Positions 1-53,538 of a DNA stretch of 64,000 nt are shown one piece after another. The notes under the pieces are model-generated. The model ran no database searches and was not told the DNA's origin. It saw only the letters and a program-made list of their open reading frames with translations. Origin of the DNA: Chryseobacterium sp. CY350 (GTDB lineage: Bacteria; Bacteroidota; Bacteroidia; Flavobacteriales; Weeksellaceae); contig NZ_CP116034.1 in assembly GCF_027945075.1 (NCBI RefSeq), forward strand, positions 930,001 through 994,000, in the 5' to 3' direction. The translations under genes were made by a program, and so were the position numbers. Position 1 is the first letter of the stretch. Every line of letters begins with the position of its first letter.

Positions 1-1164
1 GATTTTATGGACGAGATGAAAAAACTCGGCAATAAAATAATCCTGGTAACATCCGAAAACCTTAAAGGAAAAGATTGGCCTTGGCATGCCATTGATGAGG
101 TTTTCTATATGCCCGAAGTGAAACCGTCTGTCTGGAATCTTGATCATCTTGTTCAGGGATTTTCACATCTGATGAAAACACGGAAAGTAGATGCTGTCAT
201 TGCATTAGATGATTATGATGTAGAAAAAGCAGCATTAATTCGCGAGACATTTCGTATTCCCGGGATGGGACAGACTACACACCGTTATTTTAGAGATAAA
301 TTGGCAATGCGTCAAAAAGCCAAAGATTCGGGGATTAATGTCCCAGAGTTTACTGCAGTCTTCAATGATCAGGAAGTAGAAAACTTCACCAACAAAGTCA
401 GTGCACCGTGGGTTCTAAAGCCAAGATCTGAAGCCTCTGCCTCCGGAATCAAAAAACTTAACAACAAAGAAGATCTTTGGACAGCTCTGGAAACATTGGG
501 TGAAGAACGTCATCTTTTTCTTCTGGAAAGCTTCAAGCCCGGTGATGTTTATCATGTTGACAGTCTTACATTCAATAAAAAAATTGTTTTCACATCAGCC
601 TCAAAATATCTGGCTCCGCCGATGGAAGTTTCACATGAAGGGGGTGTTTTCAGAACCAAAACTTTAGGAAGATATTCTGATGAATTTATCGCATTAGATG
701 AAGCCAATTCTAAGGTTCTGATGAACTTTGGCTTGATGAATGGTGCGACGCATACAGAATTTATTCGTGGTAAAGAAGATGGAAAATGGTATTTTCTTGA
801 AACAGCCTCAAGAGTTGGCGGTGCGCATATACCAGATCTTGTGGAAGCATCTAGTAATATTAATATATGGAGAGAATGGGCAAGAATAGAAGACGCATTG
901 CTAAAAGGCAAAAACTATGAAGTCGCAAAACCTACGGGATATTATTCAGGATTGATCGTTGCATTAATTAAAGATAAACAGCCAGATTATGATCAGTTTC
1001 AATGTGAAGAAGTGGTAAAATTTCTTCCAATTGATTATCACGTGGGAATCGTTTACAAATCAAAAGATTCTGAAAAAGTGGTAGAAAGATTAGATCGTGC
1101 TGCTGAAAAGATTTATTCACATCTGCTCAATATTATTCCACCAAAAGAAAAACCAACAGCTTAA
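1..1164 (+). CDS. ATP-grasp carboxylate-amine ligase (5' truncated by window edge)
   Basis: ATP-grasp ligases activate a carboxylate as acyl-phosphate and join it to an amine. The frame is open to the first base (D-F precede the first ATG at base 7), and the usual N-terminal Rossmann strand is incomplete, so the true start probably lies upstream. Visible are an ATP-binding lysine in the segment APWVLKPRSEASASG near residue 140 and a C-terminal metal-binding stretch with ETASRVGGAH near residue 270. It is the first visible gene of a + strand run of amidoligase genes (esterase, RimK-like ATP-grasp, YbdK-like ligase, glutamine amidotransferase). The substrate cannot be read from sequence. The family assignment is firm; the role in a peptide-like metabolite pathway is inferred from context. 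Confidence 0.85.
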   Translation, partial: DFMDEMKKLGNKIILVTSENLKGKDWPWHAIDEVFYMPEVKPSVWNLDHLVQGFSHLMKTRKVDAVIALDDYDVEKAALIRETFRIPGMGQTTHRYFRDKLAMRQKAKDSGINVPEFTAVFNDQEVENFTNKVSAPWVLKPRSEASASGIKKLNNKEDLWTALETLGEERHLFLLESFKPGDVYHVDSLTFNKKIVFTSASKYLAPPMEVSHEGGVFRTKTLGRYSDEFIALDEANSKVLMNFGLMNGATHTEFIRGKEDGKWYFLETASRVGGAHIPDLVEASSNINIWREWARIEDALLKGKNYEVAKPTGYYSGLIVALIKDKQPDYDQFQCEEVVKFLPIDYHVGIVYKSKDSEKVVERLDRAAEKIYSHLLNIIPPKEKPTA

Positions 1165-1297
1165 AGATTAGTTATTATTAAATTAATTGAAATTCAGAAA
1201 CTTATTAATTTAAAATGAATTAATTTGGAACCTAAATGACGATTCAGTTAAAATAACCATATAAAAATTCAGAAATAAAACTAAAAATCTATAGTAC

Positions 1298-2011
1298 ATG
1301 CCACATATAGAACACACAGATTATTACTCACATATATTAGGAATTAGCCTTAAAGTTGAAGTTACGGGACATTTCGGTTATCCGATCATTATGTTTCCGA
1401 CTTCGCAGGGACAATACACTCAGAATCATGATTTTCACCTAAACAGCAGCATAGACTGGTTTGTTGAGCAGGGAAAAGTAAAATTATACAACATTCAGAC
1501 AATTGATGCATGGAGTTTTTATGATGATAAAATTTCTCCCCAGCAGAGAATCAGAAATTACGAAAAATATGTACAATTTCTCATTCAGGAATTTATACCC
1601 TACATCCAGAAACTTCATGGTACACATCGTGTAGCTGTAGCCGGAGCAAGTTTCGGAGGTTATCATGCATCGAATTTTGCTTTTAGATTTCCCGATGTAG
1701 TTTCTCATTTATTTTCACTCTCGGGAGCGTTCAGCATCAGGAATTTCATGGATGGATATTCTGACGATTTGGTTTATTTCAATTGTCCGAGAGAATTTAT
1801 GAAAAACGATGAAGCCTGGAAATACAAACATATGCATATCGTTCTGTGTACTTCAGATGAAGATATCTGTAGAGACAAAAATATTGAAATGGCAGATATT
1901 CTTCGTGCAAAAGGTATCGACTTTTGGTACGATGAAAAAAGGTGGATCAATCATGACTGGCCGCTTTGGCGAATGGCCTTTCCTAACTTTATCGGAACTT
2001 TCTTTTCTTAA
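1298..2011 (+). CDS. alpha/beta-hydrolase esterase (COG4947-like)
   Basis: This 237-residue protein has no signal peptide and carries the nucleophile elbow GASFGG with Ser118, a following helix, and a late His (INHDWP near residue 220) that would complete a Ser-Asp-His triad. It resembles the putative esterase family that includes COG4947. Lying between two ATP-grasp genes, it could release, transfer or trim the product of the ligases, for instance by cleaving an ester or thioester intermediate; this is inference. About 130 bases of AT-rich sequence separate it from the upstream ligase, and 46 bases from the next gene, so a shared transcript is plausible. Confidence 0.85.
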   Translation: MPHIEHTDYYSHILGISLKVEVTGHFGYPIIMFPTSQGQYTQNHDFHLNSSIDWFVEQGKVKLYNIQTIDAWSFYDDKISPQQRIRNYEKYVQFLIQEFIPYIQKLHGTHRVAVAGASFGGYHASNFAFRFPDVVSHLFSLSGAFSIRNFMDGYSDDLVYFNCPREFMKNDEAWKYKHMHIVLCTSDEDICRDKNIEMADILRAKGIDFWYDEKRWINHDWPLWRMAFPNFIGTFFS

Positions 2012-2057
2012 AAATTTAAACAACTCAAATTAATAATAAATCATTAAAAAACAAATT

Positions 2058-3011
2058 ATGGCAAAAAAAGTAGGAATTTTATTTGGTATGGAAGATACTT
2101 TTCCGTGGGCATTTATAGATAAAGTAAATGAACTTGGAAAGGGAGAAATTGTAGCTGAAGCAGTAACAATCGATAAATTAGAGCAGGGTGCAGATTATGG
2201 GTATGCAGTAATTATTGACAGAATTTCGCAGGATGTACCTTTTTACAGAGCTTATCTTAAAAATGCAGCATTAAAAGGAACTTACGTCATCAACAACCCT
2301 TTTTGGTGGAGTGCAGACGAAAAGTTCTTTAATAATGCTTTGATGTCTAAACTTGGAATTCCGTTACCTAATACTGTTTTGTTGCCTTCGTACGAAAGAC
2401 CTACAGATACGTCTGAGACATCGTTCAGAAACCTTAAATTCCCTCATGACTGGGATTATATTTTCAATTACGTTGGTTTCCCAGCTTATATGAAACCTCA
2501 TGACGGCGGCGGCTGGAAAAGTGTTTACAGAGTTGAGAGTCCGGAAGATCTTTGGGAAAAACTTTCTGAAACAGAGCAGTTGGTGATGATGGTTCAGGAA
2601 GAGATTGTATTTCAGGATTATTACAGAGTGTATTGTTTAGGCAAAAAATATGTTCACATAATGCCATATGAACCAAGAAATCCGCATCATTTGAGATATG
2701 CAACAACACATCAGACAGAAGGGAAAGATTTAGAAAAATTGTTAAAAGTGATTCATGATTATACGATTACAATGAATGAAGCTTTAGGTTACGATTTCAA
2801 TACCGTAGAATTTGCCGTTAGAGACGGAATTCCTTATGCAATTGACTTCTGTAATCCTGCGCCGGATGCCGACAGAAATTCTGTTGGTGAAGAAAACTTC
2901 GCATGGATTGTTGAGCATTCTGCAAAACTGGCAATCGAAAAAGCCAAAGAATATGTTCCCGGAAAACAAAATATCTCATGGGGAACTTTTGTGAAAGATT
3001 CAGTAAAATAA
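2058..3011 (+). CDS. RimK-type ATP-grasp ligase
   Basis: A 317-residue cytoplasmic ATP-grasp protein with an N-terminal pre-ATP-grasp domain (KVGILFG), an ATP-binding lysine in AYMKPHDGGGW near residue 152, and a C-terminal metal-binding region (NTVEFAVRDG then IDFCNPAPDADRNS) that supplies the usual Asp and Asn ligands. RimK-type enzymes attach amino acids to a carboxylate. It is the second ligase of the cluster, with only 24 bases to the YbdK-like gene, so the two are probably co-translated. Substrate unknown. Relatives in such neighbourhoods are often annotated only as ATP-grasp domain or RimK-like proteins. Confidence 0.85.
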   Translation: MAKKVGILFGMEDTFPWAFIDKVNELGKGEIVAEAVTIDKLEQGADYGYAVIIDRISQDVPFYRAYLKNAALKGTYVINNPFWWSADEKFFNNALMSKLGIPLPNTVLLPSYERPTDTSETSFRNLKFPHDWDYIFNYVGFPAYMKPHDGGGWKSVYRVESPEDLWEKLSETEQLVMMVQEEIVFQDYYRVYCLGKKYVHIMPYEPRNPHHLRYATTHQTEGKDLEKLLKVIHDYTITMNEALGYDFNTVEFAVRDGIPYAIDFCNPAPDADRNSVGEENFAWIVEHSAKLAIEKAKEYVPGKQNISWGTFVKDSVK

Positions 3012-3035
3012 AACCATAAAAAACACAAATTAAAA

Positions 3036-4154
3036 ATGCATCAGTTTACTATTGGGATTGAAGAGGAATATCAAATCATTGATTTAGAAAGCAGAGATTT
3101 GGTTTCTCACGTTTCAAAAATCATCGAAGGAGGAAAAGCGGTTTTAAGTGAAAATTTAAAGCACGAAATGCACGAATCAATGATTGAAATGGAAACCGGA
3201 ATCTGCCAGAATATACAGGAAGCGCAGGCGGAACTCACCAATCTGAGAAGACATCTCATCAATACAGCTCATGAGCAGGGACTTCGTGTTTCAGGTGGTG
3301 GAACGCACCCGTTCTCAAACTGGGAACACAATACGATTACTAATGGTGAACGTTACAACAAAATTGTAGACGATATGGGCGATGTAGCCCGTGGAAATCT
3401 TATTTTTGGTCTTCACGTTCATATTGGGATTCCGAATCGTGAAGAAGGCGTAAGGATTCAGAATGTGATGCGTTATTTTCTTCCGCACGTTTATGCTCTT
3501 TCCGTAAATTCTCCTTTCTGGATTGGCAGAAATACAGGATTCAGATCTTACAGACAGGAAATATTTGTAAAATTTCCAAGAACGGGTATTCCGAGTTACT
3601 TCAATTCTTTGGCAGAATTTGACAGCTATGTAGATCTTCTGGTGAAAACCGGAACAATTGATAATGCTAAAAAAATCTGGTGGGATTTGCGCGTTCACCC
3701 ATTCTACCCTACCATAGAATTTAGAATCTGCGATATGCCTTTGAGAATCGAAGAAACCGTTTGTCTCGCGGCGATTATGCAAAGTTTAGTAGCTAAAATC
3801 TATAAATTGCATCAGCAGAATTTAAGTTTCAGAAGCTACAGAAGATTGTTGCTTAATGAAAATAAATGGCGTGCTTCCAGAGACGGAATTCACTCTCAGT
3901 TAATTGATTTTGGCAAAGAAGAATCTGTACCATATCCCGATTTACTCAAAGAATTATTAGAGTTCATAGACGATGTTGTAGACGATTTGGGATGTAGAAA
4001 AGAAGTGGAATACGCATGGAAAATATTAGAAAACGGAACAGGTGCCGACAGGCAACTTGCGGTCTATAAAGAAACAGGTGATCTGAAGAAAGTCGTTGAT
4101 TACATGATCTCTGAGACAGAATACGGAATTACTCACGGTGAAAATGCTTCGTAA
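3036..4154 (+). CDS. YbdK-family carboxylate-amine ligase (GCS2 fold)
   Basis: This 372-residue protein belongs to the glutamate-cysteine-ligase family 2 (COG2170, YbdK). The family signature IGIEEEYQI sits at residues 6-14, where the glutamates bind metal, and GLHVHIGIPN follows near residue 125. YbdK has weak glutamate-cysteine ligase activity in vitro, but family members in biosynthetic clusters are thought to make other gamma-type amide bonds. Full family length. It follows the RimK-like gene after 24 bases and is followed by a glutamine amidotransferase, so three amide-forming or amide-handling activities lie side by side. The true acceptor and donor are unknown. Confidence 0.9.
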   Translation: MHQFTIGIEEEYQIIDLESRDLVSHVSKIIEGGKAVLSENLKHEMHESMIEMETGICQNIQEAQAELTNLRRHLINTAHEQGLRVSGGGTHPFSNWEHNTITNGERYNKIVDDMGDVARGNLIFGLHVHIGIPNREEGVRIQNVMRYFLPHVYALSVNSPFWIGRNTGFRSYRQEIFVKFPRTGIPSYFNSLAEFDSYVDLLVKTGTIDNAKKIWWDLRVHPFYPTIEFRICDMPLRIEETVCLAAIMQSLVAKIYKLHQQNLSFRSYRRLLLNENKWRASRDGIHSQLIDFGKEESVPYPDLLKELLEFIDDVVDDLGCRKEVEYAWKILENGTGADRQLAVYKETGDLKKVVDYMISETEYGITHGENAS

Positions 4155-4164
4155 TATTTTTAAT

Positions 4165-4172
4165 AACTTTGC
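4165..4172 (+). promoter_or_regulatory. -7 box inside the amidoligase cluster
   Basis: TAACTTTG matches the Bacteroidota -7 consensus TAnnTTTG and lies 14 bases before the amidotransferase start codon. No TTG is found at the expected -33 distance, so this may be a weak internal promoter. Confidence 0.4.
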
Positions 4173-4186
4173 ATAAAATATGAGTT

Positions 4187-5020
4187 ATGAAAGATCTTAG
4201 AATTGCTTTGCTGGACATGAATAATAATCAGGTAAATCAAGGATTTAAAAACATTAAAGAAATATCTGAAGCCTTCCAGAAGCAGTCTGAAGAAAATATT
4301 AGTATAGAAGTTTTTGATGTAAGATTTAAAAATGAAATGCCCAATGTCAGAGATTTTGACATTTTTATTTCTTCCGGAGGCCCAGGAAATCCGCACAGAG
4401 AAGGTCATGACTGGGAACAGAAATTTGCTGATTTTTTAAATTCTGTTTACGTCCACAATCAACAAAATGAAGCGAAGAAATTTCTGTTTTTAATTTGTCA
4501 TTCTTTTCAGTTAGCTAGCATTCATTGGGAATTAGGAAATATCTGCAAAAGAAATTCGTACTCTTTTGGTGTGATGCCTATTCATAAAACAGAAAATGGT
4601 GAGCAAGAATTCTTATTTAAAAACCTTCCGGATCCTTTTTATGCAGTAGATTCTCGGGCTTATCAATTTATAGAGCCTGATCACGATCGTTTTGAAGAAC
4701 TGGGAATGAAAATTGTTGCGATTGAAAAATTCCGTCCTCATGTGAATTTAGAAAGAGCTGTGATGGCGATTCGCTTTTCAGATGAGATTTTCGGAACTCA
4801 GTTTCACCCCGAGGCAAATCCTGAAGGTATGATCGAGAACCTGAAAGATGAAAAGAATAAAAATGCAATGATTGAAAATTATGGAATGGAAAAATATCTC
4901 GAAACGGTTGACAGGATGGACGATGAAGATAAAATCGTTCTTACACAAGCTCAGATTTTGCCACGATTCTTGAGATTAGCAAAAAAAAACATTTTGAAAG
5001 ACGTTGAAGCAATGGCTTAA
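4187..5020 (+). CDS. class I glutamine amidotransferase-like protein
   Basis: A 277-residue class I glutamine amidotransferase (GATase1) protein. The nucleophile Cys104 sits in LICHSF, and the His207/Glu209 pair sits in FGTQFHPEA, so the catalytic triad is complete; an oxyanion-type SSGGPGNP motif is near residue 62. GATases release ammonia from glutamine for a partner, or act as gamma-glutamyl hydrolases. In this cluster it may supply ammonia to a ligase to make an amide, or cleave a gamma-glutamyl group; the sequence does not decide. The roughly 60 residues after the HPE motif are a C-terminal extension. A hairpin terminator follows directly. Confidence 0.88.
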   Translation: MKDLRIALLDMNNNQVNQGFKNIKEISEAFQKQSEENISIEVFDVRFKNEMPNVRDFDIFISSGGPGNPHREGHDWEQKFADFLNSVYVHNQQNEAKKFLFLICHSFQLASIHWELGNICKRNSYSFGVMPIHKTENGEQEFLFKNLPDPFYAVDSRAYQFIEPDHDRFEELGMKIVAIEKFRPHVNLERAVMAIRFSDEIFGTQFHPEANPEGMIENLKDEKNKNAMIENYGMEKYLETVDRMDDEDKIVLTQAQILPRFLRLAKKNILKDVEAMA

Positions 5021-5042
5021 TCTTTTATAAATAAAAACTATC

Positions 5043-5070
5043 AAAATCGGGCACAATTGCTCGATTTTTT
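5043..5070 (+). terminator. intrinsic terminator or attenuator after the amidotransferase gene
   Basis: Arms AAAATCG (5043-5049) and CGATTTT (5062-5068), with an inner GCA/TGC pair, are followed by a T run. It separates the first five cluster genes from the sixth, which starts 20 bases later and so may be expressed at a lower level by readthrough. Confidence 0.6.
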
Positions 5071-5090
5071 AAATCACAAAAGAAAAAAAC

Positions 5091-6272
5091 ATGATTCCAC
5101 AATACAGAAAACAGTTTAATGAGGAATTTACTCAGGAAAAATATGATCGTTTTAAAGAAATTTTAAAAGAAAAAAGTGGATTGGAAGCTTCTTTCAGACT
5201 TTCTGAGAGTCCGATGTTTCTCACAAATGAATTTAAAGACAAACTGATTGACGCAAGCGAGAGCATTATCGATCAAATAAAAGCTTTGCCAGCGGGAATT
5301 TTAGAAAAAGCTATACCAGAAAACTGCAAAGTTCCCAACGATACAAAACAACCTCATTTTTTCACGATTGATTTTGGAATCTGCAGAAGTGCAAGCGGAG
5401 AAATAGAACCACAATTAATTGAATTGCAAGCTTTTCCATCTCTGTATGCTTTTCAGAAAGTTTTTGAAGAAACATTTTGTGAGGTTTATCCTTTTTTAAA
5501 TGATGTTAAAAGCCAAATGCCACAGGAAGACTTTCAAAATTATCTGAAAGAATTAATTGTTGGTAATGAAAATCCTGAAAATGTAATTCTACTTGAAATT
5601 TTTCCTGAAAAACAGAAGACAGCCGTTGATTTTGCTTTAACTGAAAAATTATTAGGAATAAAAACGGTTTGCCTGACAAAAGTAAAAAAAGAAGGTAAAA
5701 AGTTATTTTACGAAAATGATGGTGAAAAAATTCAGATCAATAGAATTTATAACCGTGTGATTTTTGATGAACTAGACAGAATTCCTGATCTAAAACTTGA
5801 ATTTGATTTCCGCGAAGATGCAGATGTAAAATGGATCACGCATCCGAATTGGTTTTTTAAAATTTCAAAATTCCTTTTGCCGATGCTACAGCATAAGTTC
5901 GTTCCTAAAAGTTATTTTTTACATGAATTTCCTGAGAGTGAAAATCTTGAAAATTTTGTTTTAAAACCTTTATTTTCTTTTGCAGGAAGCGGAGTTAATC
6001 TAAATCCGACAAAAGAAGTTACAGACGCAATTGAAGATAAGGAGAATTATATTTTGCAGCGAAAAGTAGTTTACGAGCCAGTTTTTGAAGACATCAACGG
6101 AGAATTTTCAAAAGCCGAAATTCGCTTACTATATATTTGGAGAGAAAATGACGAACGACCGATTTTGCTTGAAAACCTTGGCAGAATGACGAAAGCTGCA
6201 ATGGTGAATGTAGATTTTAATAAAAAAGATGCGATTTGGATTGGAAGTTCTAATACTTTTTTTGTGGATTAA
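5091..6272 (+). CDS. probable ATP-grasp-fold protein of the amidoligase cluster, uncharacterised
   Basis: A 393-residue cytoplasmic protein that I do not recognise from a characterised family. The C-terminal half carries ATP-grasp-like features: a lysine-glycine stretch NFVLKPLFSFAGSGVN near residue 300, a strand YILQRKVV about 30 residues later, and a late acidic/Asn region (RLLYIWR then LENLGRMTKAAMVNVDFN). The N-terminal half (residues 1-200) is mixed helix with a conserved-looking IELQAFPSLYAFQ. The layout resembles glutathionylspermidine-synthase-like ATP-grasps. Cluster position supports a third ligase. It lies 70 bases downstream of the amidotransferase, behind a hairpin. Fold inferred; function unknown. 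Confidence 0.6.
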   Translation: MIPQYRKQFNEEFTQEKYDRFKEILKEKSGLEASFRLSESPMFLTNEFKDKLIDASESIIDQIKALPAGILEKAIPENCKVPNDTKQPHFFTIDFGICRSASGEIEPQLIELQAFPSLYAFQKVFEETFCEVYPFLNDVKSQMPQEDFQNYLKELIVGNENPENVILLEIFPEKQKTAVDFALTEKLLGIKTVCLTKVKKEGKKLFYENDGEKIQINRIYNRVIFDELDRIPDLKLEFDFREDADVKWITHPNWFFKISKFLLPMLQHKFVPKSYFLHEFPESENLENFVLKPLFSFAGSGVNLNPTKEVTDAIEDKENYILQRKVVYEPVFEDINGEFSKAEIRLLYIWRENDERPILLENLGRMTKAAMVNVDFNKKDAIWIGSSNTFFVD

Positions 6273-6291
6273 CATTAAAACTAACAAAAAG

Positions 6292-6330
6292 ATGGAAGAA
6301 ACATCTCGTTTTGACGTTTTCGATATATAA
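6292..6330 (+). other. candidate 12-residue micro-ORF at the end of the amidoligase cluster
   Basis: An ATG 20 bases after the preceding stop opens a short frame, MEETSRFDVFDI, that ends before the shared terminator. It is acidic and aromatic. There is no Shine-Dalgarno, but neighbouring real genes also lack one. It could be a tiny substrate or leader peptide, a fragment, or chance; nothing else supports it. Confidence 0.15.
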
Positions 6331-6376
6331 AGTTTTTAAAAATTAGAACAAAGCTGGAAACGGTTTGGTAAACAAA

Positions 6377-6405
6377 AACCTCAGAAATATTTCTGAGGTT
6401 TTTTT
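6377..6405. terminator. bidirectional terminator between the amidoligase cluster and cphA
   Basis: A perfect hairpin (arms AACCTCAGAAAT and ATTTCTGAGGTT) is flanked by T7 on the + strand and a run of five A on the other side. It can end both the + strand amidoligase transcript and the - strand cphA transcript. Confidence 0.8.
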
Positions 6406-6454
6406 ATGATAGTAAGCTGTGGCGGACATCTTTGAAGTCCGCCGCAAATATATT

Positions 6455-9082
6455 TTATATTTTACCATCTTCAAGCAACTCTCTCGCTTGATATTCCTGT
6501 ACGAGATCTATTGCATTAGAAATAACATCGCTCAATGCGGTGATGAAGGTTCCTTCTTCAGCCATTCCCATAGCATGTTTTAGAGCTTCAATTTCTTTAG
6601 GAATCGTTTCATAGCTTACATCTCTCCCTGAAGATTGCATTCCCTCGATGATTAAGCCGTTAATCTCCTCCTCTGTTCTTCCTCTTAGATGCTTTTCATT
6701 TCGGATGATAATATGATCAAACATTCTTCCTGCAATTTTACCGCATAATCTGATATCTTCGTCTCTTCTATCGCCAACGCCTGAAATAATTCCTATTTTT
6801 TTTGTCGATTCTACATTTTTAAGATAATCTTCGATCGCTTCATATCCTGCAGGATTGTGTGCAAAGTCTATTAAAACTTTAAAGTTTTTAAATTTAAAAA
6901 CATTCAATCTTCCTGGTGTAAGCTGTGCGCTCGGTATGAAAGTTCGAAGAGAATTTGAAATATCTTCAATACCAAATCCATATAAATAACAAGCTAAACT
7001 CGCTGCCAAAACATTATCAATCATGAATTTTGCTTTACCATCCATGGTGATAGGGAAATCTTTGGCTTTACCAATCCTTATTTTCCAGTCGCCTTTTTTG
7101 ATAGTTACGTAGCCTTCTTCATAGACGCAGGTTGTTTTACCTTCTTTCGCAAATTTTTTGATATATTCATTGTTTTCATCCAAACTGAAAATTGCCACAT
7201 TGCTTGGCAAATCATTGATGATTCTCATTGAATACTCATCCTCGGCATTCAGAACGCTCCATCCATTTTTCTTTACCGCATCCAGAACAACTCTCTTTAC
7301 CTTCGTAAGGTCTTTAAGATTGTGTATGTCATTAAGACCCAGATGATCTTCTTTAATATTGGTTAAAACTCCAATATCGCATTGCGAAAAACCTAAACCG
7401 GAGCGAAGAATTCCACCTCTGGCAGTTTCCAGAACGGCAAATTCTACAGTAGGATCTTTTAATATAAATTCGGCAGAAATAGGACCAGTAGTATCACCTT
7501 TTGTCAACATTGTATTTTGAATGTAGATGCCGTCAGACGTTGTAAATCCTACTCTATACCCGTTACTTTTAACAATATGTGATATTAATCGTGTCGTTGT
7601 TGTCTTACCATTAGTTCCCGTCACTGCAATAATAGGAATCGTAAACGGCTTCCCTTGTGGATATAACATATCTACTACCGGAGCAGCCACATTTCTAGGC
7701 AGACCTTCGCTTGGCGCCAAATGCATTCTGAAACCCGGCGCGGCATTAACTTCAATAATAGCCCCACCACTTTCTTTTAATGGTTGAGTTAAATTTTCGG
7801 CCATAATATCAATTCCGCAAACATCTAAACCGATAATTTTTGAAATCCTCTCAGCCATGGTGATATTTTCCGGATGCACCATATCGGTGACATCGATTGA
7901 TGTTCCGCCTGTTGAGAGATTAGCTGTAGATTTCAGATAAACCACTTCTCCTCTTTGTGGAACTGTATCTAAAGTATAATGAAGTTTCTCTAGTAATTCT
8001 GAAGTATCTTTATCAATACTGATCTCGGTAAGAACATTTTCGTGTCCGTAGCCTCTTCGTGAATCCTGATTTTCTTTATCAATTAATTGCTGAATATTCA
8101 TCTCACCGTCACCAACGATGTGCGCAGGAACTCTTCTTGCTGCAGCAACCATTTTATTATTAATCACTAAAACCCGGAAATCATATCCCGTAACGTATTT
8201 TTCAACAATTACTTTATTTGAATAATTTTGGGCATGTTCCAAACCAATTTTGGCAACTTCCCAATCGTTTACATTGATTGAAGAACCCTTTCCATGATTT
8301 CCGTCTAAAGGTTTTATGACAATAGGATATCCAATTTTCTGAATTATATTTTGAAGCTGTTCTTCTGTGGTAATTAAATCACCTGTCGGAACCGGAATCG
8401 CGGCATCGTGCAGCATTCTTTTCGTTAATTCTTTATTGCAGGCAATATCAACAGCAATCGAGCTCGTATTTCCGGTAATTGTAGCCTGAAATCTTTGTTG
8501 ATTTACTCCGTAGCCCAGCTGTACAAGAGAATTACTTCCCAGTCTTATCCAAGGAATTTTTCTTGATACCGCTTCTTCTACGATACTTCCTGTTGAAGGC
8601 CCAAGACGCACGCGTTCTCTTATTTCCTTTAAACTTTGTATGCAAAGATTAAGATCGTATTCTGTTCCGTTAATTAAGGCATGAGCTATTTCTACCGCTT
8701 GTTCTGCAGCATAAATTCCTGCATTCTCTTCTATATAATCAAAAACTACATTATAAACTCCGGGCGTTTTCGTTTCGCGAGTTCTCCCGAATCCGGAATC
8801 CATCCCGGCAAGAGTCTGAATTTCTAACGCAATATGTTCGATAACATGCCCCATCCAAGTTCCAGTTTCTATACGGTGAAAAAAACCGCCATGTGTACCT
8901 TCAGAACATCTGTGAGTAATTAAAGAAGGAATCAGTTTTTCTATTCTTTCACGGAAGCCCTCAATTTTATTGGTAGGGAAATTCTCCATTTCTTCAAGAT
9001 CCAAACGCATTTGTATCAACTTCTTTCTTCTAATACTCCAGATATTAGGACCCCTCAAAGCTTGTATCTTCTCAATTTTCAT
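6455..9082 (-). CDS. cphA: cyanophycin synthetase
   Basis: CphA polymerises L-aspartate and L-arginine into cyanophycin with ATP, adding Asp to the backbone and Arg to its side chain. At 875 residues it has the full three-domain length: an N-terminal domain (about 1-160), an ATP-grasp domain (about 215-475) with Lys257, the loop GNHGKGSS at 261-268 and the metal-binding EVN at 444-446, and a Mur-ligase-like domain (about 480-875) with the P-loop GTNGKTTTT at 489-497 and DFAHNPAGYEAI later. All expected catalytic parts are present, so the enzyme should be active. It is divergent from cphB across 197 bases and converges on the amidoligase cluster at a shared terminator. The polymer could serve as a nitrogen store. 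Confidence 0.96.
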   Translation of the reverse strand: MKIEKIQALRGPNIWSIRRKKLIQMRLDLEEMENFPTNKIEGFRERIEKLIPSLITHRCSEGTHGGFFHRIETGTWMGHVIEHIALEIQTLAGMDSGFGRTRETKTPGVYNVVFDYIEENAGIYAAEQAVEIAHALINGTEYDLNLCIQSLKEIRERVRLGPSTGSIVEEAVSRKIPWIRLGSNSLVQLGYGVNQQRFQATITGNTSSIAVDIACNKELTKRMLHDAAIPVPTGDLITTEEQLQNIIQKIGYPIVIKPLDGNHGKGSSINVNDWEVAKIGLEHAQNYSNKVIVEKYVTGYDFRVLVINNKMVAAARRVPAHIVGDGEMNIQQLIDKENQDSRRGYGHENVLTEISIDKDTSELLEKLHYTLDTVPQRGEVVYLKSTANLSTGGTSIDVTDMVHPENITMAERISKIIGLDVCGIDIMAENLTQPLKESGGAIIEVNAAPGFRMHLAPSEGLPRNVAAPVVDMLYPQGKPFTIPIIAVTGTNGKTTTTRLISHIVKSNGYRVGFTTSDGIYIQNTMLTKGDTTGPISAEFILKDPTVEFAVLETARGGILRSGLGFSQCDIGVLTNIKEDHLGLNDIHNLKDLTKVKRVVLDAVKKNGWSVLNAEDEYSMRIINDLPSNVAIFSLDENNEYIKKFAKEGKTTCVYEEGYVTIKKGDWKIRIGKAKDFPITMDGKAKFMIDNVLAASLACYLYGFGIEDISNSLRTFIPSAQLTPGRLNVFKFKNFKVLIDFAHNPAGYEAIEDYLKNVESTKKIGIISGVGDRRDEDIRLCGKIAGRMFDHIIIRNEKHLRGRTEEEINGLIIEGMQSSGRDVSYETIPKEIEALKHAMGMAEEGTFITALSDVISNAIDLVQEYQARELLEDGKI

Positions 9083-9126
9083 AGTTTAGTATCGAAATTT
9101 ATATTAATAAAATTATCTTTTCATAT

Positions 9127-9134
9127 CAAAGATA
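9127..9134 (-). promoter_or_regulatory. -7 box of cphA
   Basis: On the - strand this reads TATCTTTG, matching TAnnTTTG, 45 bases upstream of the cphA start. No clear TTG at -33. Confidence 0.4.
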
Positions 9135-9265
9135 ATGCAAAACCTTAAAAAAAACCACAGTGCTGTTAAAGATTTATTAAAAAACTTTCAATTTCGTAAT
9201 CAATTTATAATCAATACAAATGCATTAAAACTGCTTTGAAATTTCCTCAACTATTAATAATTTTC

Positions 9266-9273
9266 TAACTTTG
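9266..9273 (+). promoter_or_regulatory. -7 box of cphB abutting the start codon
   Basis: TAACTTTG ends six bases before the ATG at 9280. With the usual 5-7 base gap to the transcription start, the mRNA would begin at or next to the start codon, giving a leaderless message. This also argues against using the in-frame TTG at 9271, which is part of the box. The nearest upstream TTG (9236-9238) is 27 bases away, longer than usual. Confidence 0.45.
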
Positions 9274-9279
9274 CCTGCT

Positions 9280-10164
9280 ATGAAACCTGTTGGAAAATTA
9301 ATTATTATCGGGGGAGCTGTTAATAAAGGCAGTTTCTCAGAATCCGATTACGATCAGAATATCGAAAAAAATCTTAACTTTTTTGAAAGAGGAATTTTAA
9401 GAAAAATCATTACTGAATCAAAAAACAAAGAAAACTCAATTATTGAGGTTATTACAACTGCATCTCAGATTCCTCAGATTGTAGGAGCAGAATATAAAAA
9501 AGCTTTTGAATTTTTAGGAGCTAAAAATGTCAACATTCTTGATATTCACAACCGCGAAGAAGCCAATTCTGATGCCATCGTTGCAAGAGCAAATGCGGCA
9601 GACGTTGTAATGTTTACAGGCGGAGATCAGCTGAGGCTGACGTCTATTCTGGGCGGAACAAGATTTCACGATACTATTTTATTAAAATATCTGGAGCAGG
9701 ATTTTATCTATTCCGGAACTTCTGCGGGAGCTGCTGCAGCATCCGAAAATATGATTTATCAGGGAAGCAGCTCAGAAGCTCTTTTGAAAGGTGAAATAAA
9801 AACTACACAAGGATTGGGACTTATTGATAACGTTATCGTTGATACCCATTTTGTGCAGCGAGGCAGAATAGGAAGACTTTTTCAGGCTGTAGTTAGTAAT
9901 CCCAGAACTTTGGGAATAGGATTGGGAGAAGATACCGGACTTTTCATTTACAATGACACAATGACCGCTGTAGGTTCGGGACTTGTAATCATCGTAGACG
10001 GAAGGTTTATAAAAGACACTAATCTTACCAATATTAATCTGGGTGAGCCCATTTCTATTGATAACCTGACCGTTCACGTGATGTCTATGAATGATCATTA
10101 TGATTTAACGACCAGAAAACTTACCATAGAAAATTCACAATTTAACCCGATACCGCAAGCTTAA
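9280..10164 (+). CDS. cphB: cyanophycinase
   Basis: CphB is a serine exopeptidase (family S51) that releases beta-Asp-Arg dipeptides from cyanophycin. From the ATG at 9280 the protein is 294 residues, the normal length. The nucleophile Ser148 lies in GTSAGA, FTGGDQ is at 112-117, and a DTHFVQRGR segment near residue 186 supplies the expected His. No signal peptide, so it acts on intracellular granules. I chose the ATG rather than an in-frame TTG nine bases upstream because that TTG lies inside the promoter -7 box. The isoaspartyl peptidase gene follows 83 bases later, so release and cleavage of the dipeptide are probably co-expressed. Confidence 0.95.
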   Translation: MKPVGKLIIIGGAVNKGSFSESDYDQNIEKNLNFFERGILRKIITESKNKENSIIEVITTASQIPQIVGAEYKKAFEFLGAKNVNILDIHNREEANSDAIVARANAADVVMFTGGDQLRLTSILGGTRFHDTILLKYLEQDFIYSGTSAGAAAASENMIYQGSSSEALLKGEIKTTQGLGLIDNVIVDTHFVQRGRIGRLFQAVVSNPRTLGIGLGEDTGLFIYNDTMTAVGSGLVIIVDGRFIKDTNLTNINLGEPISIDNLTVHVMSMNDHYDLTTRKLTIENSQFNPIPQA

Positions 10165-10247
10165 ATATATCATTAAAGATTATTTATTTGCAAATGAATT
10201 CAATTTGTGAATTAATTAATTTCTTATCAACCATCAATCACAATTTT

Positions 10248-11090
10248 ATGAAAATCATCATTCACGGAGGTTTTTTCTCTGAAAGCGATCAAAGCAATGA
10301 CGTGAAAATTGCTAAGCAAAATTCTTTGAAAGATATTGCAAAAAAAGCTTACCTTTATTTAGAAACGCATTCTGCATTTGAGACTGCTGCTTTTGCAGTT
10401 TCTCTTTTAGAAGACGATGAATTATATAACGCGGGGATTGGATCGCAGATTCAAAGTGACGGAATTATTCGCATGAGTGCTGCAATCATGGATGGTGAAA
10501 CTCAGAAAATGAGTGGCGTCATCAATATTCAAAATGTCAAAAATCCGATATTTGTAGCTAAAGATTTAATGAAAGAAGATGACAGAGTTTTGGGTGGAAG
10601 CGGTGCTAAAAATTATGCAACTGAACATGGTTTTGAAGATTTTTCAACCGAAATTCCTCGACGCAGAAAAGAATATGAAGCCAAGTTAAACAATGGTGGA
10701 AAAGGCACTGTAGGATGTGTCGCATTTGATAAAGATAAGAAACTGGCCGTCGCAACATCTACTGGCGGAAAAGGTTTTGAAATTCCTGGAAGGATCTCAG
10801 ATTCTGCCACAGTTGCAGGTAATTATACCAACGAATTCTGCGCTGTCAGTTGTACAGGAGTTGGTGAAGATATTGTGAGCAATGCGACGTCAGCAAAAAT
10901 TGTCACACGAGTAACGGACGGAATGAATCTAAAACAGGCTTTTGAAAAGACTTTTGCAGAGCTAAAAACTATTGACGGTTTTGCAGGAGCAATTGCAATT
11001 GATAAAGATGGAGATATGTATCATCAGGATTCTCATCCAATGATGGTTTTTGCAAGTTATGACGGAGAAAATTTTGAAATATTTAATTAA
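10248..11090 (+). CDS. isoaspartyl peptidase / L-asparaginase (Ntn hydrolase)
   Basis: A plant-type asparaginase/isoaspartyl dipeptidase. The precursor cleaves itself before the nucleophile Thr154 (GGKGTVGCVAFD) to give alpha and beta subunits; the beta subunit carries GNYTNE and a late GFAGAIAI segment. Start chosen at 10248 because family members begin with MKIIIHGG; an ATG 60 bases upstream would add an unlikely extension. The linker before Thr154 (EIPRRRKEYEAKLNNGGKG) is basic and compact. Its place behind cphB fits hydrolysis of beta-Asp-Arg into Asp and Arg, which completes cyanophycin breakdown. The substrate is inferred from context, since homologues also hydrolyse other isoaspartyl dipeptides and asparagine. 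Confidence 0.9.
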   Translation: MKIIIHGGFFSESDQSNDVKIAKQNSLKDIAKKAYLYLETHSAFETAAFAVSLLEDDELYNAGIGSQIQSDGIIRMSAAIMDGETQKMSGVINIQNVKNPIFVAKDLMKEDDRVLGGSGAKNYATEHGFEDFSTEIPRRRKEYEAKLNNGGKGTVGCVAFDKDKKLAVATSTGGKGFEIPGRISDSATVAGNYTNEFCAVSCTGVGEDIVSNATSAKIVTRVTDGMNLKQAFEKTFAELKTIDGFAGAIAIDKDGDMYHQDSHPMMVFASYDGENFEIFN

Positions 11091-53238: not shown

Positions 53239-53314
<76 letters not shown>

Positions 53315-53353
53315 GTGAATTTTTAGAGTGCTTACCGAAAGCACTGATCTTAG

Positions 53354-53426
<73 letters not shown>

Positions 53427-53465
53427 GTGTATTTTTAGAGTGCTTACCGACAGCACTGATCTTAG

Positions 53466-53538
<73 letters not shown>

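What the first reader, a model, noticed from the sequence alone, without database searches (positions are those of the whole stretch)
1..11090. Amidoligase cluster next to a complete cyanophycin system
Seen: two clear ATP-grasp ligases and a third probable one, a YbdK-type ligase, a glutamine amidotransferase and an esterase on the + strand, converging at a terminator with cphA, followed by divergent cphB and an isoaspartyl peptidase. Known: cyanophycin is Asp/Arg polymer; ATP-grasp/GCS2/GATase neighbourhoods were flagged in comparative genomics as likely makers of novel peptide-like compounds. Inference: the cluster may make a related amino-acid conjugate, or modify cyanophycin or its dipeptide. 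I know of no described link between such a cluster and the cyanophycin genes.
Basis: partly seen in the sequence, partly recalled or inferred. Interest (0 to 1): 0.8.

Follow-up and report, generated by a model that had tools for sequence, protein, structure and literature searches.

The report
Glutathionylspermidine-like amidoligase cluster beside cyanophycin genes
Beside its genes for the nitrogen store cyanophycin, this bacterium (closest relatives: Chryseobacterium) carries a set of peptide-joining enzyme genes that recurs across many Bacteroidota, mostly with no cyanophycin synthetase gene next to it, and that likely makes a small, still unidentified peptide conjugate resembling glutathionylspermidine.

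The parts
1..1164 (+). AG1, ATP-grasp ligase (gene starts 48 bases before the window; 403 aa); nearest solved sequences are L-amino acid ligases
   Evidence: 4wd3, 72 bits
1298..2011 (+). E2, alpha/beta-hydrolase of the PF00756 esterase family; Ser118 (GASFGG), Asp189, Asp212 and His219 conserved in at least 93% of 39 homologues
2058..3011 (+). AG2, RimK/LysX/ArgX-fold ATP-grasp ligase (by model); 57-92% identical to 22 aligned orthologues
3036..4154 (+). GCS2, YbdK-family carboxylate-amine ligase
4187..5020 (+). GAT, class-I glutamine amidotransferase-type protein; Cys104, His207, Glu209 conserved in at least 93% of 44 homologues; gap to AG3 under 200 bp in 42 of 44 loci holding both
5091..6272 (+). 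AG3, ligase of the YgiC/YjfC/glutathionylspermidine synthetase/eukaryotic glutathione synthetase fold (by model)
6374..6403 (.). perfect 15-nt inverted repeat with flanking A/T runs: likely bidirectional terminator between AG3 and cphA
6455..9082 (-). cphA, cyanophycin synthetase (a neighbour, not part of the inferred pathway)
9271..10164 (+). cphB, cyanophycinase (neighbour)
10188..11090 (+). Asparaginase_2-family, isoaspartyl-peptidase-type gene (neighbour)

Best explanation
The genes E2-AG2-GCS2-GAT-AG3, usually with the second esterase E1, form a conserved cluster that occurs both with and without cyanophycin synthetase in the genome, and it likely makes a small gamma-glutamyl-type peptide conjugate by the logic of glutathionylspermidine synthesis. 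Shown: the three ligases co-occur across genomes even where they are unlinked; GCS2 is of the YbdK family; AG2 and AG3 model as the RimK/LysX fold and the glutathionylspermidine-synthetase/glutathione-synthetase fold. Inferred: GCS2 would activate a side-chain carboxylate (probably of glutamate) and join it to an amine or amino acid; AG2 would add a further residue; AG3 would phosphorylate the peptide carboxylate and cap it with an amine, amino acid or polyamine. GAT, the constant neighbour of AG3, would either hydrolyse a gamma-glutamyl amide (a make-and-break pair, as in the fused E. coli Gsp synthetase/amidase) or feed ammonia to AG3. The esterases, and in the window's family the M17 aminopeptidase, would trim or recycle the product, and AG1, of the L-amino acid ligase type, would add one more residue. 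The cyanophycin genes are a lineage-specific neighbour whose degradation would at most supply Asp and Arg.
Confidence: 0.45

Rival explanations
1. GAT and AG3 form an ammonia-transferring amidotransferase, so that the product is a small peptide with a terminal carboxamide, comparable to the osmolyte N-acetylglutaminylglutamine amide (recalled).
For: GAT keeps the Cys-His-Glu triad and Gln108 (that this Gln contacts the substrate is recalled); it is within 200 bp of AG3 in 42 of 44 loci and overlaps it in 13 by my ORF starts; it stays with AG3 where GCS2 is missing (L161, L176, L179).
Against: The nearest characterised fold relatives of AG3 use amines or amino acids, not ammonia (recalled; partly); the Verrucomicrobia-labelled locus has AG3 but no GAT.
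Confidence: 0.25
2. The cluster tags or modifies proteins: AG2 works like RimK on a protein target, and its basic tail holds it on nucleic acid or ribosomes.
For: RimK/LysX fold of the model; 26 of 41 AG2 copies have basic tails of 22-280 residues, two with repeated AT-hook cores.
Against: The nine loci of the window's family have tails of only 5-6 residues, so the tail is not needed; GCS2, AG3, two esterases and aminopeptidases together point to a small molecule.
Confidence: 0.12
3. The cluster modifies cyanophycin or its beta-Asp-Arg dipeptide.
For: Conserved convergence with cphA in the genus; co-occurrence odds ratios 9.6 (family) and 3.5 (class), not corrected for relatedness; Hymenobacter loci have cphB and an isoaspartyl-peptidase-type gene within about 12 kb of AG3; AG1 resembles L-amino acid ligases (that 4wd3 is RizA is recalled, and that RizA makes arginyl dipeptides is from a listed abstract, PMC9321006).
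Against: 10 of 31 AG3+ class genomes have no cphA; phi 0.22; AG1 is also present in genomes without cphA (L106, L107); separate, convergent transcription.
Confidence: 0.08
4. The cluster makes a glutathione-like low-molecular-weight thiol.
For: Glutathione-synthetase fold of the AG3 model plus a GCS2 ligase; the one Hymenobacter E1 tested (L110) is fused to a DinB_2 domain that also matches mycothiol and YfiT bacillithiol transferases.
Against: All 31 AG3+ class genomes have BshC of bacillithiol synthesis; the YfiT match is 39.3 of 160 bits.
Confidence: 0.07

Closest known systems
Glutathionylspermidine synthetase/amidase and YgiC/YjfC peptide-spermidine ligases (E. coli)
   Different: Gln replaces Asn and the Arg is missing in AG3; the hydrolase is a separate class-I GATase-type protein; GCS2 and a RimK-fold ligase are encoded beside it
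Glutathione synthesis (GshA/GshB, eukaryotic GS; recalled)
   Same: GCS2-type ligase plus glutathione-synthetase-fold ligase
   Different: GCS2 is of the YbdK subfamily; further ATP-grasp ligases, GATase and esterases; the AG3+ class genomes carry the bacillithiol gene bshC
E-64 pathway (Cp1B ATP-grasp ligase), PMC12568646 (abstract and passages seen)
   Different: fungal, with an oxygenase and an ANL-type amide synthetase
Cyanophycin metabolism (cphA/cphB/iaaA)
   Same: stands next to the cluster here
   Different: separate transcription unit; not adjacent in the other families sampled
Amidoligase neighbourhoods of Iyer et al. 2009 (recalled; paper not held)
   Same: ATP-grasp, GCS2 and GATase genes together
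   Different: whether this exact cluster is listed there could not be checked

Membership tests
Cyanophycin synthetase and cyanophycinase | curated NCBIfam cut-offs passed | tested here: met
   TIGR02068 1263 of 850; TIGR02069 226 of 126.6
Isoaspartyl peptidase (iaaA) | equivalog model PRK10226 passed | tested here: not met
   127.7 of 567 bits; only the family PF01112 is passed
Glutathionylspermidine synthetase/YgiC family | same overall fold | tested here: met
Glutathionylspermidine synthetase/YgiC family | Pfam GSP_synth gathering score | tested here: not met
   18.9 of 29.3 bits
Glutathionylspermidine synthetase/YgiC family | R-x-D ... E-x-N signature (metal-binding role recalled) | tested here: not met
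   D94 and E111 invariant in A2, but Gln113 for Asn and no Arg two before D94
Glutathionylspermidine synthetase/YgiC family | ligates a peptide to a polyamine | not testable with these tools
   needs enzyme assay
YbdK carboxylate-amine ligase (GCS2) | family model passed | tested here: met
   TIGR02050 306.7 of 176.4; PRK13515 535.7 of 371
RimK alpha-L-glutamate ligase (AG2) | subfamily model TIGR00768 passed | tested here: not met
Class-I glutamine amidotransferase | Pfam cut-off and Cys-His-Glu triad | tested here: met
   39.3 of 22.8 bits; Cys104, His207, Glu209 in at least 93% of 44
Graspetide (RiPP) cluster | precursor peptide gene beside the ATP-grasp gene | tested here: not met
   the five gaps of 24-133 bases between the window's genes 1-6272 hold no + strand ORF of 20 aa or more lying wholly inside them; other loci not tested

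The most novel reading that the evidence does not exclude
Bacteroidota, and some bins labelled Verrucomicrobia and Ignavibacterium, run an unrecognised glutathionylspermidine-like pathway whose product is a peptide-amine conjugate made at the nucleoid: in most lineages the central ligase AG2 is anchored to DNA or another polyanion by a histone-H1-like or AT-hook tail, and in two lineages (the Chryseobacterium family and Hymenobacter) cyanophycin-degrading genes were drawn beside it to feed it with amino acids.
Probability: 0.12. Interest if true: 0.85.

Novelty: new variant of a known kind. Interest (0 to 1): 0.55.

Why it matters
A gene cluster found in 12 families of the class sample, with AG2 57-92% identical among aligned copies, must make something selected for, yet I found no known product. 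Placing AG3 in the glutathione/glutathionylspermidine synthetase fold gives a concrete set of substrates to try. The result also corrects a tempting misreading: closeness to cyanophycin genes is lineage history here, not the pathway's general logic.

Tried and rejected
General cyanophycin link: tested by co-occurrence and distance and rejected as a general role. RiPP precursor: none found in the window's gaps. Thiol replacing bacillithiol: BshC (E 1e-20) is in 185 of 197 class genomes, among them all 31 AG3+ ones. Cluster-linked cyanophycinase as a wider rule: of 32 AG3+ or AG2+ class genomes, 24 have a cphB match, but one lies near AG3 only in G000, G020 and G055, judging by coordinates; the isoaspartyl-peptidase family PF01112 is in 32 of 32 and so uninformative, apart from places near AG3 in G000, G020, G055 and about 11.5 kb away in G047. 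PDB sequence searches found nothing for AG2 and GAT at the limits used and only YgiC at E 0.051 for AG3. Papers: in the listings of ten searches I saw no paper describing this cluster; the library holds open-licence papers only. Iyer et al. 2009 could not be read. I saw passages only of PMC4431377, PMC12568646 (outline and abstract 65), PMC12506659, PMC10948618, PMC11573002, PMC2922099, PMC8939145; PMC9321006 only in a listing; a Dyadobacter paper lists cyanophycin genes as unique to one of two strains.

Limits: co-occurrence statistics are not corrected for relatedness; Fisher values treat related genomes as independent. Many genomes are drafts, so 'different contigs' does not prove distance. 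The 47 loci were chosen by me: 20 of the 31 AG3 genomes (fetched), 26 of the 80 loci, and L008. The 40 loci handed to searches were chosen because one search showed no cphA in their flanks; one genome was not held, 39 searched. From the AG2 count I left out one match (G034, 31% identity) as a paralogue. ORF calls in my scripts are mechanical; the cphA of one of three fetched Hymenobacter-type regions (L184) was not returned. In one search only 8000 AG2 candidates could be scored, and all 8000 passed.
Full report
What is there. The window is bases 930001-994000 of a single-contig 4.09 Mb genome; the nearest named relatives of its AG3 gene are Chryseobacterium records (76-85% identity over 27 loci), so it is most likely a Chryseobacterium. 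Reading upstream shows that the + strand set begins earlier: an esterase (E1, PF00756), an M17 aminopeptidase (PF00883), AG1, E2, AG2, GCS2, GAT, AG3. Gaps inside the window's part are 24-133 bases. A perfect 15-nt inverted repeat with T-runs at 6374-6403 separates AG3 from cphA.

A conserved cluster. Mapping the window's proteins on these loci and on 20 further loci from unnamed class genomes, then clustering all ORFs of 47 chosen loci, gave a core E1 | E2-AG2-GCS2-GAT-AG3, all six in 33 of 47 loci. Outside the window's family E1, where found, is on the opposite strand. AG1 is in 10 of 47 loci (nine of the window's family and L176) and M17 in the nine. Of the 14 incomplete loci, three lack only E1 (L105, L136, L170), one only E2 (L171), one only GAT (L128, a Verrucomicrobia-labelled bin, which has an M29 aminopeptidase there), three lack GCS2 and one or both esterases (L161, L176, L179), and six hold only a part of the set (L114, L144, L163, L167, L172, L175); for the last four of these AG2 lies elsewhere in the genome.

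The pathway test. In 197 class genomes AG3 is in 31 and AG2 in 31, 30 shared; GCS2 is in 28, 27 shared with AG3. phi is 0.96 and 0.90. In G063, G102, G120 and G021 the genes are on different contigs or megabases apart and still co-occur. Exceptions: G147 has AG3 and GCS2 without AG2, G110 has AG2 and GCS2 without AG3 (both drafts), and G001, G132, G152 and G182 have AG2 and AG3 without GCS2 at E 1e-80. These numbers are not corrected for relatedness.

The cyanophycin test. cphA (E 1e-200) is in 83 of the same 197; it is in 21 of 31 AG3+ and 62 of 166 AG3-negative genomes (phi 0.22, odds ratio 3.5). The AG3+ genomes of families f16 (5), f61 (2), f35 (1) and f3 (1) have none. Of the 19 genomes outside the window's family with both, one (G063) has them on one contig, 34 kb apart; in four the contig ends within about 4 kb of AG3. 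In the window's family (148 genomes), AG3 is in 73, cphA in 96, both in 64, odds ratio 9.6. Own genus: 24 of 24 have both, 23 on one contig, all convergent, 100-4353 bp apart. Genera g128 and g123: 3 of 3, convergent, 90-1110 bp. In the other 37 genomes with both: in g124, 12 of 21 are on one contig, 19-82 kb apart; in g139 five of six are 4.6-52 kb apart; in g122 one is 25 kb and two are hundreds of kilobases or more apart; g132 90 kb; the rest are on different contigs or, in one g144 genome, megabases apart. Nine AG3+ genomes have no cphA, among them the four AG3+ of g136 and the three AG3+ of g126; 32 of 75 AG3-negative genomes keep cphA. So the closeness looks like an inherited, loosening neighbourhood. 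Among the 80 named loci, 27 have cphA in the fetched flank, all labelled Chryseobacterium or Halpernia; of 39 genomes of loci without it, 15 have cphA elsewhere. These genomes have two to four cphB-like genes each, which makes a chance neighbour easier. In two such regions looked at (L183, L185) cphA stands elsewhere, without cphB beside it. This could be chance or a hint that amino acids from isopeptides feed the pathway.

How it likely works. GCS2-type, RimK-fold and Gsp-fold ligases together resemble the toolkit of glutathione and glutathionylspermidine synthesis (recalled). I infer stepwise growth of a small peptide with a gamma-glutamyl link, capped by AG3 with an amine or amino acid, and turnover by GAT, esterases and lineage-specific aminopeptidases. 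The order of steps and all substrates are inference. The strongest rival is a GAT-AG3 ammonia transfer giving a peptide amide.

Oddities. Of 41 AG2 copies, 26 have C-terminal tails of at least 20 residues (22-280), all with K+R of 0.15 or more (mean 0.27, D+E 0.07); L166 (280 residues, 11 AT-hook-core matches) and L171 (150, 6) stand out; the nine of the window's family have 5-6 residues (the AT-hook and histone-H1 likeness is recalled). One paper search joining ATP-grasp and AT-hook listed nothing on it (top 10 of 49 seen). E1 of L110 (Hymenobacter) is fused to a DinB_2 domain, yet bshC is in all 31 AG3+ class genomes, so the cluster does not replace bacillithiol.

Verdict. Observation confirmed; the reading as a peptide-like metabolite cluster is likely, the tie to cyanophycin is lineage-specific. 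Novelty: a new variant of a known kind, since each enzyme family is known, while the combination and its product were not described in the papers I could see.

Noticed in passing
L166:12159-13922 (-), L171:4346-5716 (+), and 24 other AG2 copies: 26 of 41 AG2 ligases, none of the window's family, end in basic, variable, Lys-rich tails, many also rich in Ala/Pro; two have repeated AT-hook cores (RGRP type, recalled motif), unusual for an ATP-grasp ligase.
   Followed up: partly
window genome G000: L181:7999-11536 (+) and L182:6855-10263 (-): Two further cphA-cphB pairs, 41-42% (cphA) and 37-41% (cphB) identical to the window's; the genome thus has three pairs, and two more cphB-like genes near 1.566 Mb. 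Pfam's cyanophycin-synthetase N-terminal domain is not matched in the two extra cphA.
   Followed up: partly
L110:4117-5676 (-); genes of like length in L112, L113, L165: Hymenobacter-type E1 is about 520 aa; in L110, the one tested, an esterase is fused to a C-terminal DinB_2 domain matching YfiT bacillithiol transferases below the cut-off.
   Followed up: partly
L109-L113, L115, L121, L129, L138 (Hymenobacter): Isoaspartyl-peptidase-type genes (nine of nine) and cphB (eight of nine in the locus, the ninth just outside by coordinates) upstream of the amidoligase core, without cphA there.
   Followed up: partly
L008:5611-8968 (-), upstream of the window: Two genes that look like glgA and glgB (recognised by eye, no family search) lie divergent from E1; the glgB-like gene is there in L070, L091, L096, L103 and L106 too, so the cluster stands between glycogen-type and cyanophycin genes in several members of the window's family.
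   Followed up: no
L128:8925-9950 (+): In a Verrucomicrobia-labelled bin an M29 aminopeptidase takes the place of GAT.
   Followed up: partly
L118, L122, L130, L137, L147 downstream of AG3: A class-III (argD-like; Pfam tested in L118 only, the others by clustering) aminotransferase gene follows AG3 within 200 bp and may belong to the pathway there.
   Followed up: no
window 53242-53538 (-): Three tRNA genes in a row.
   Followed up: no
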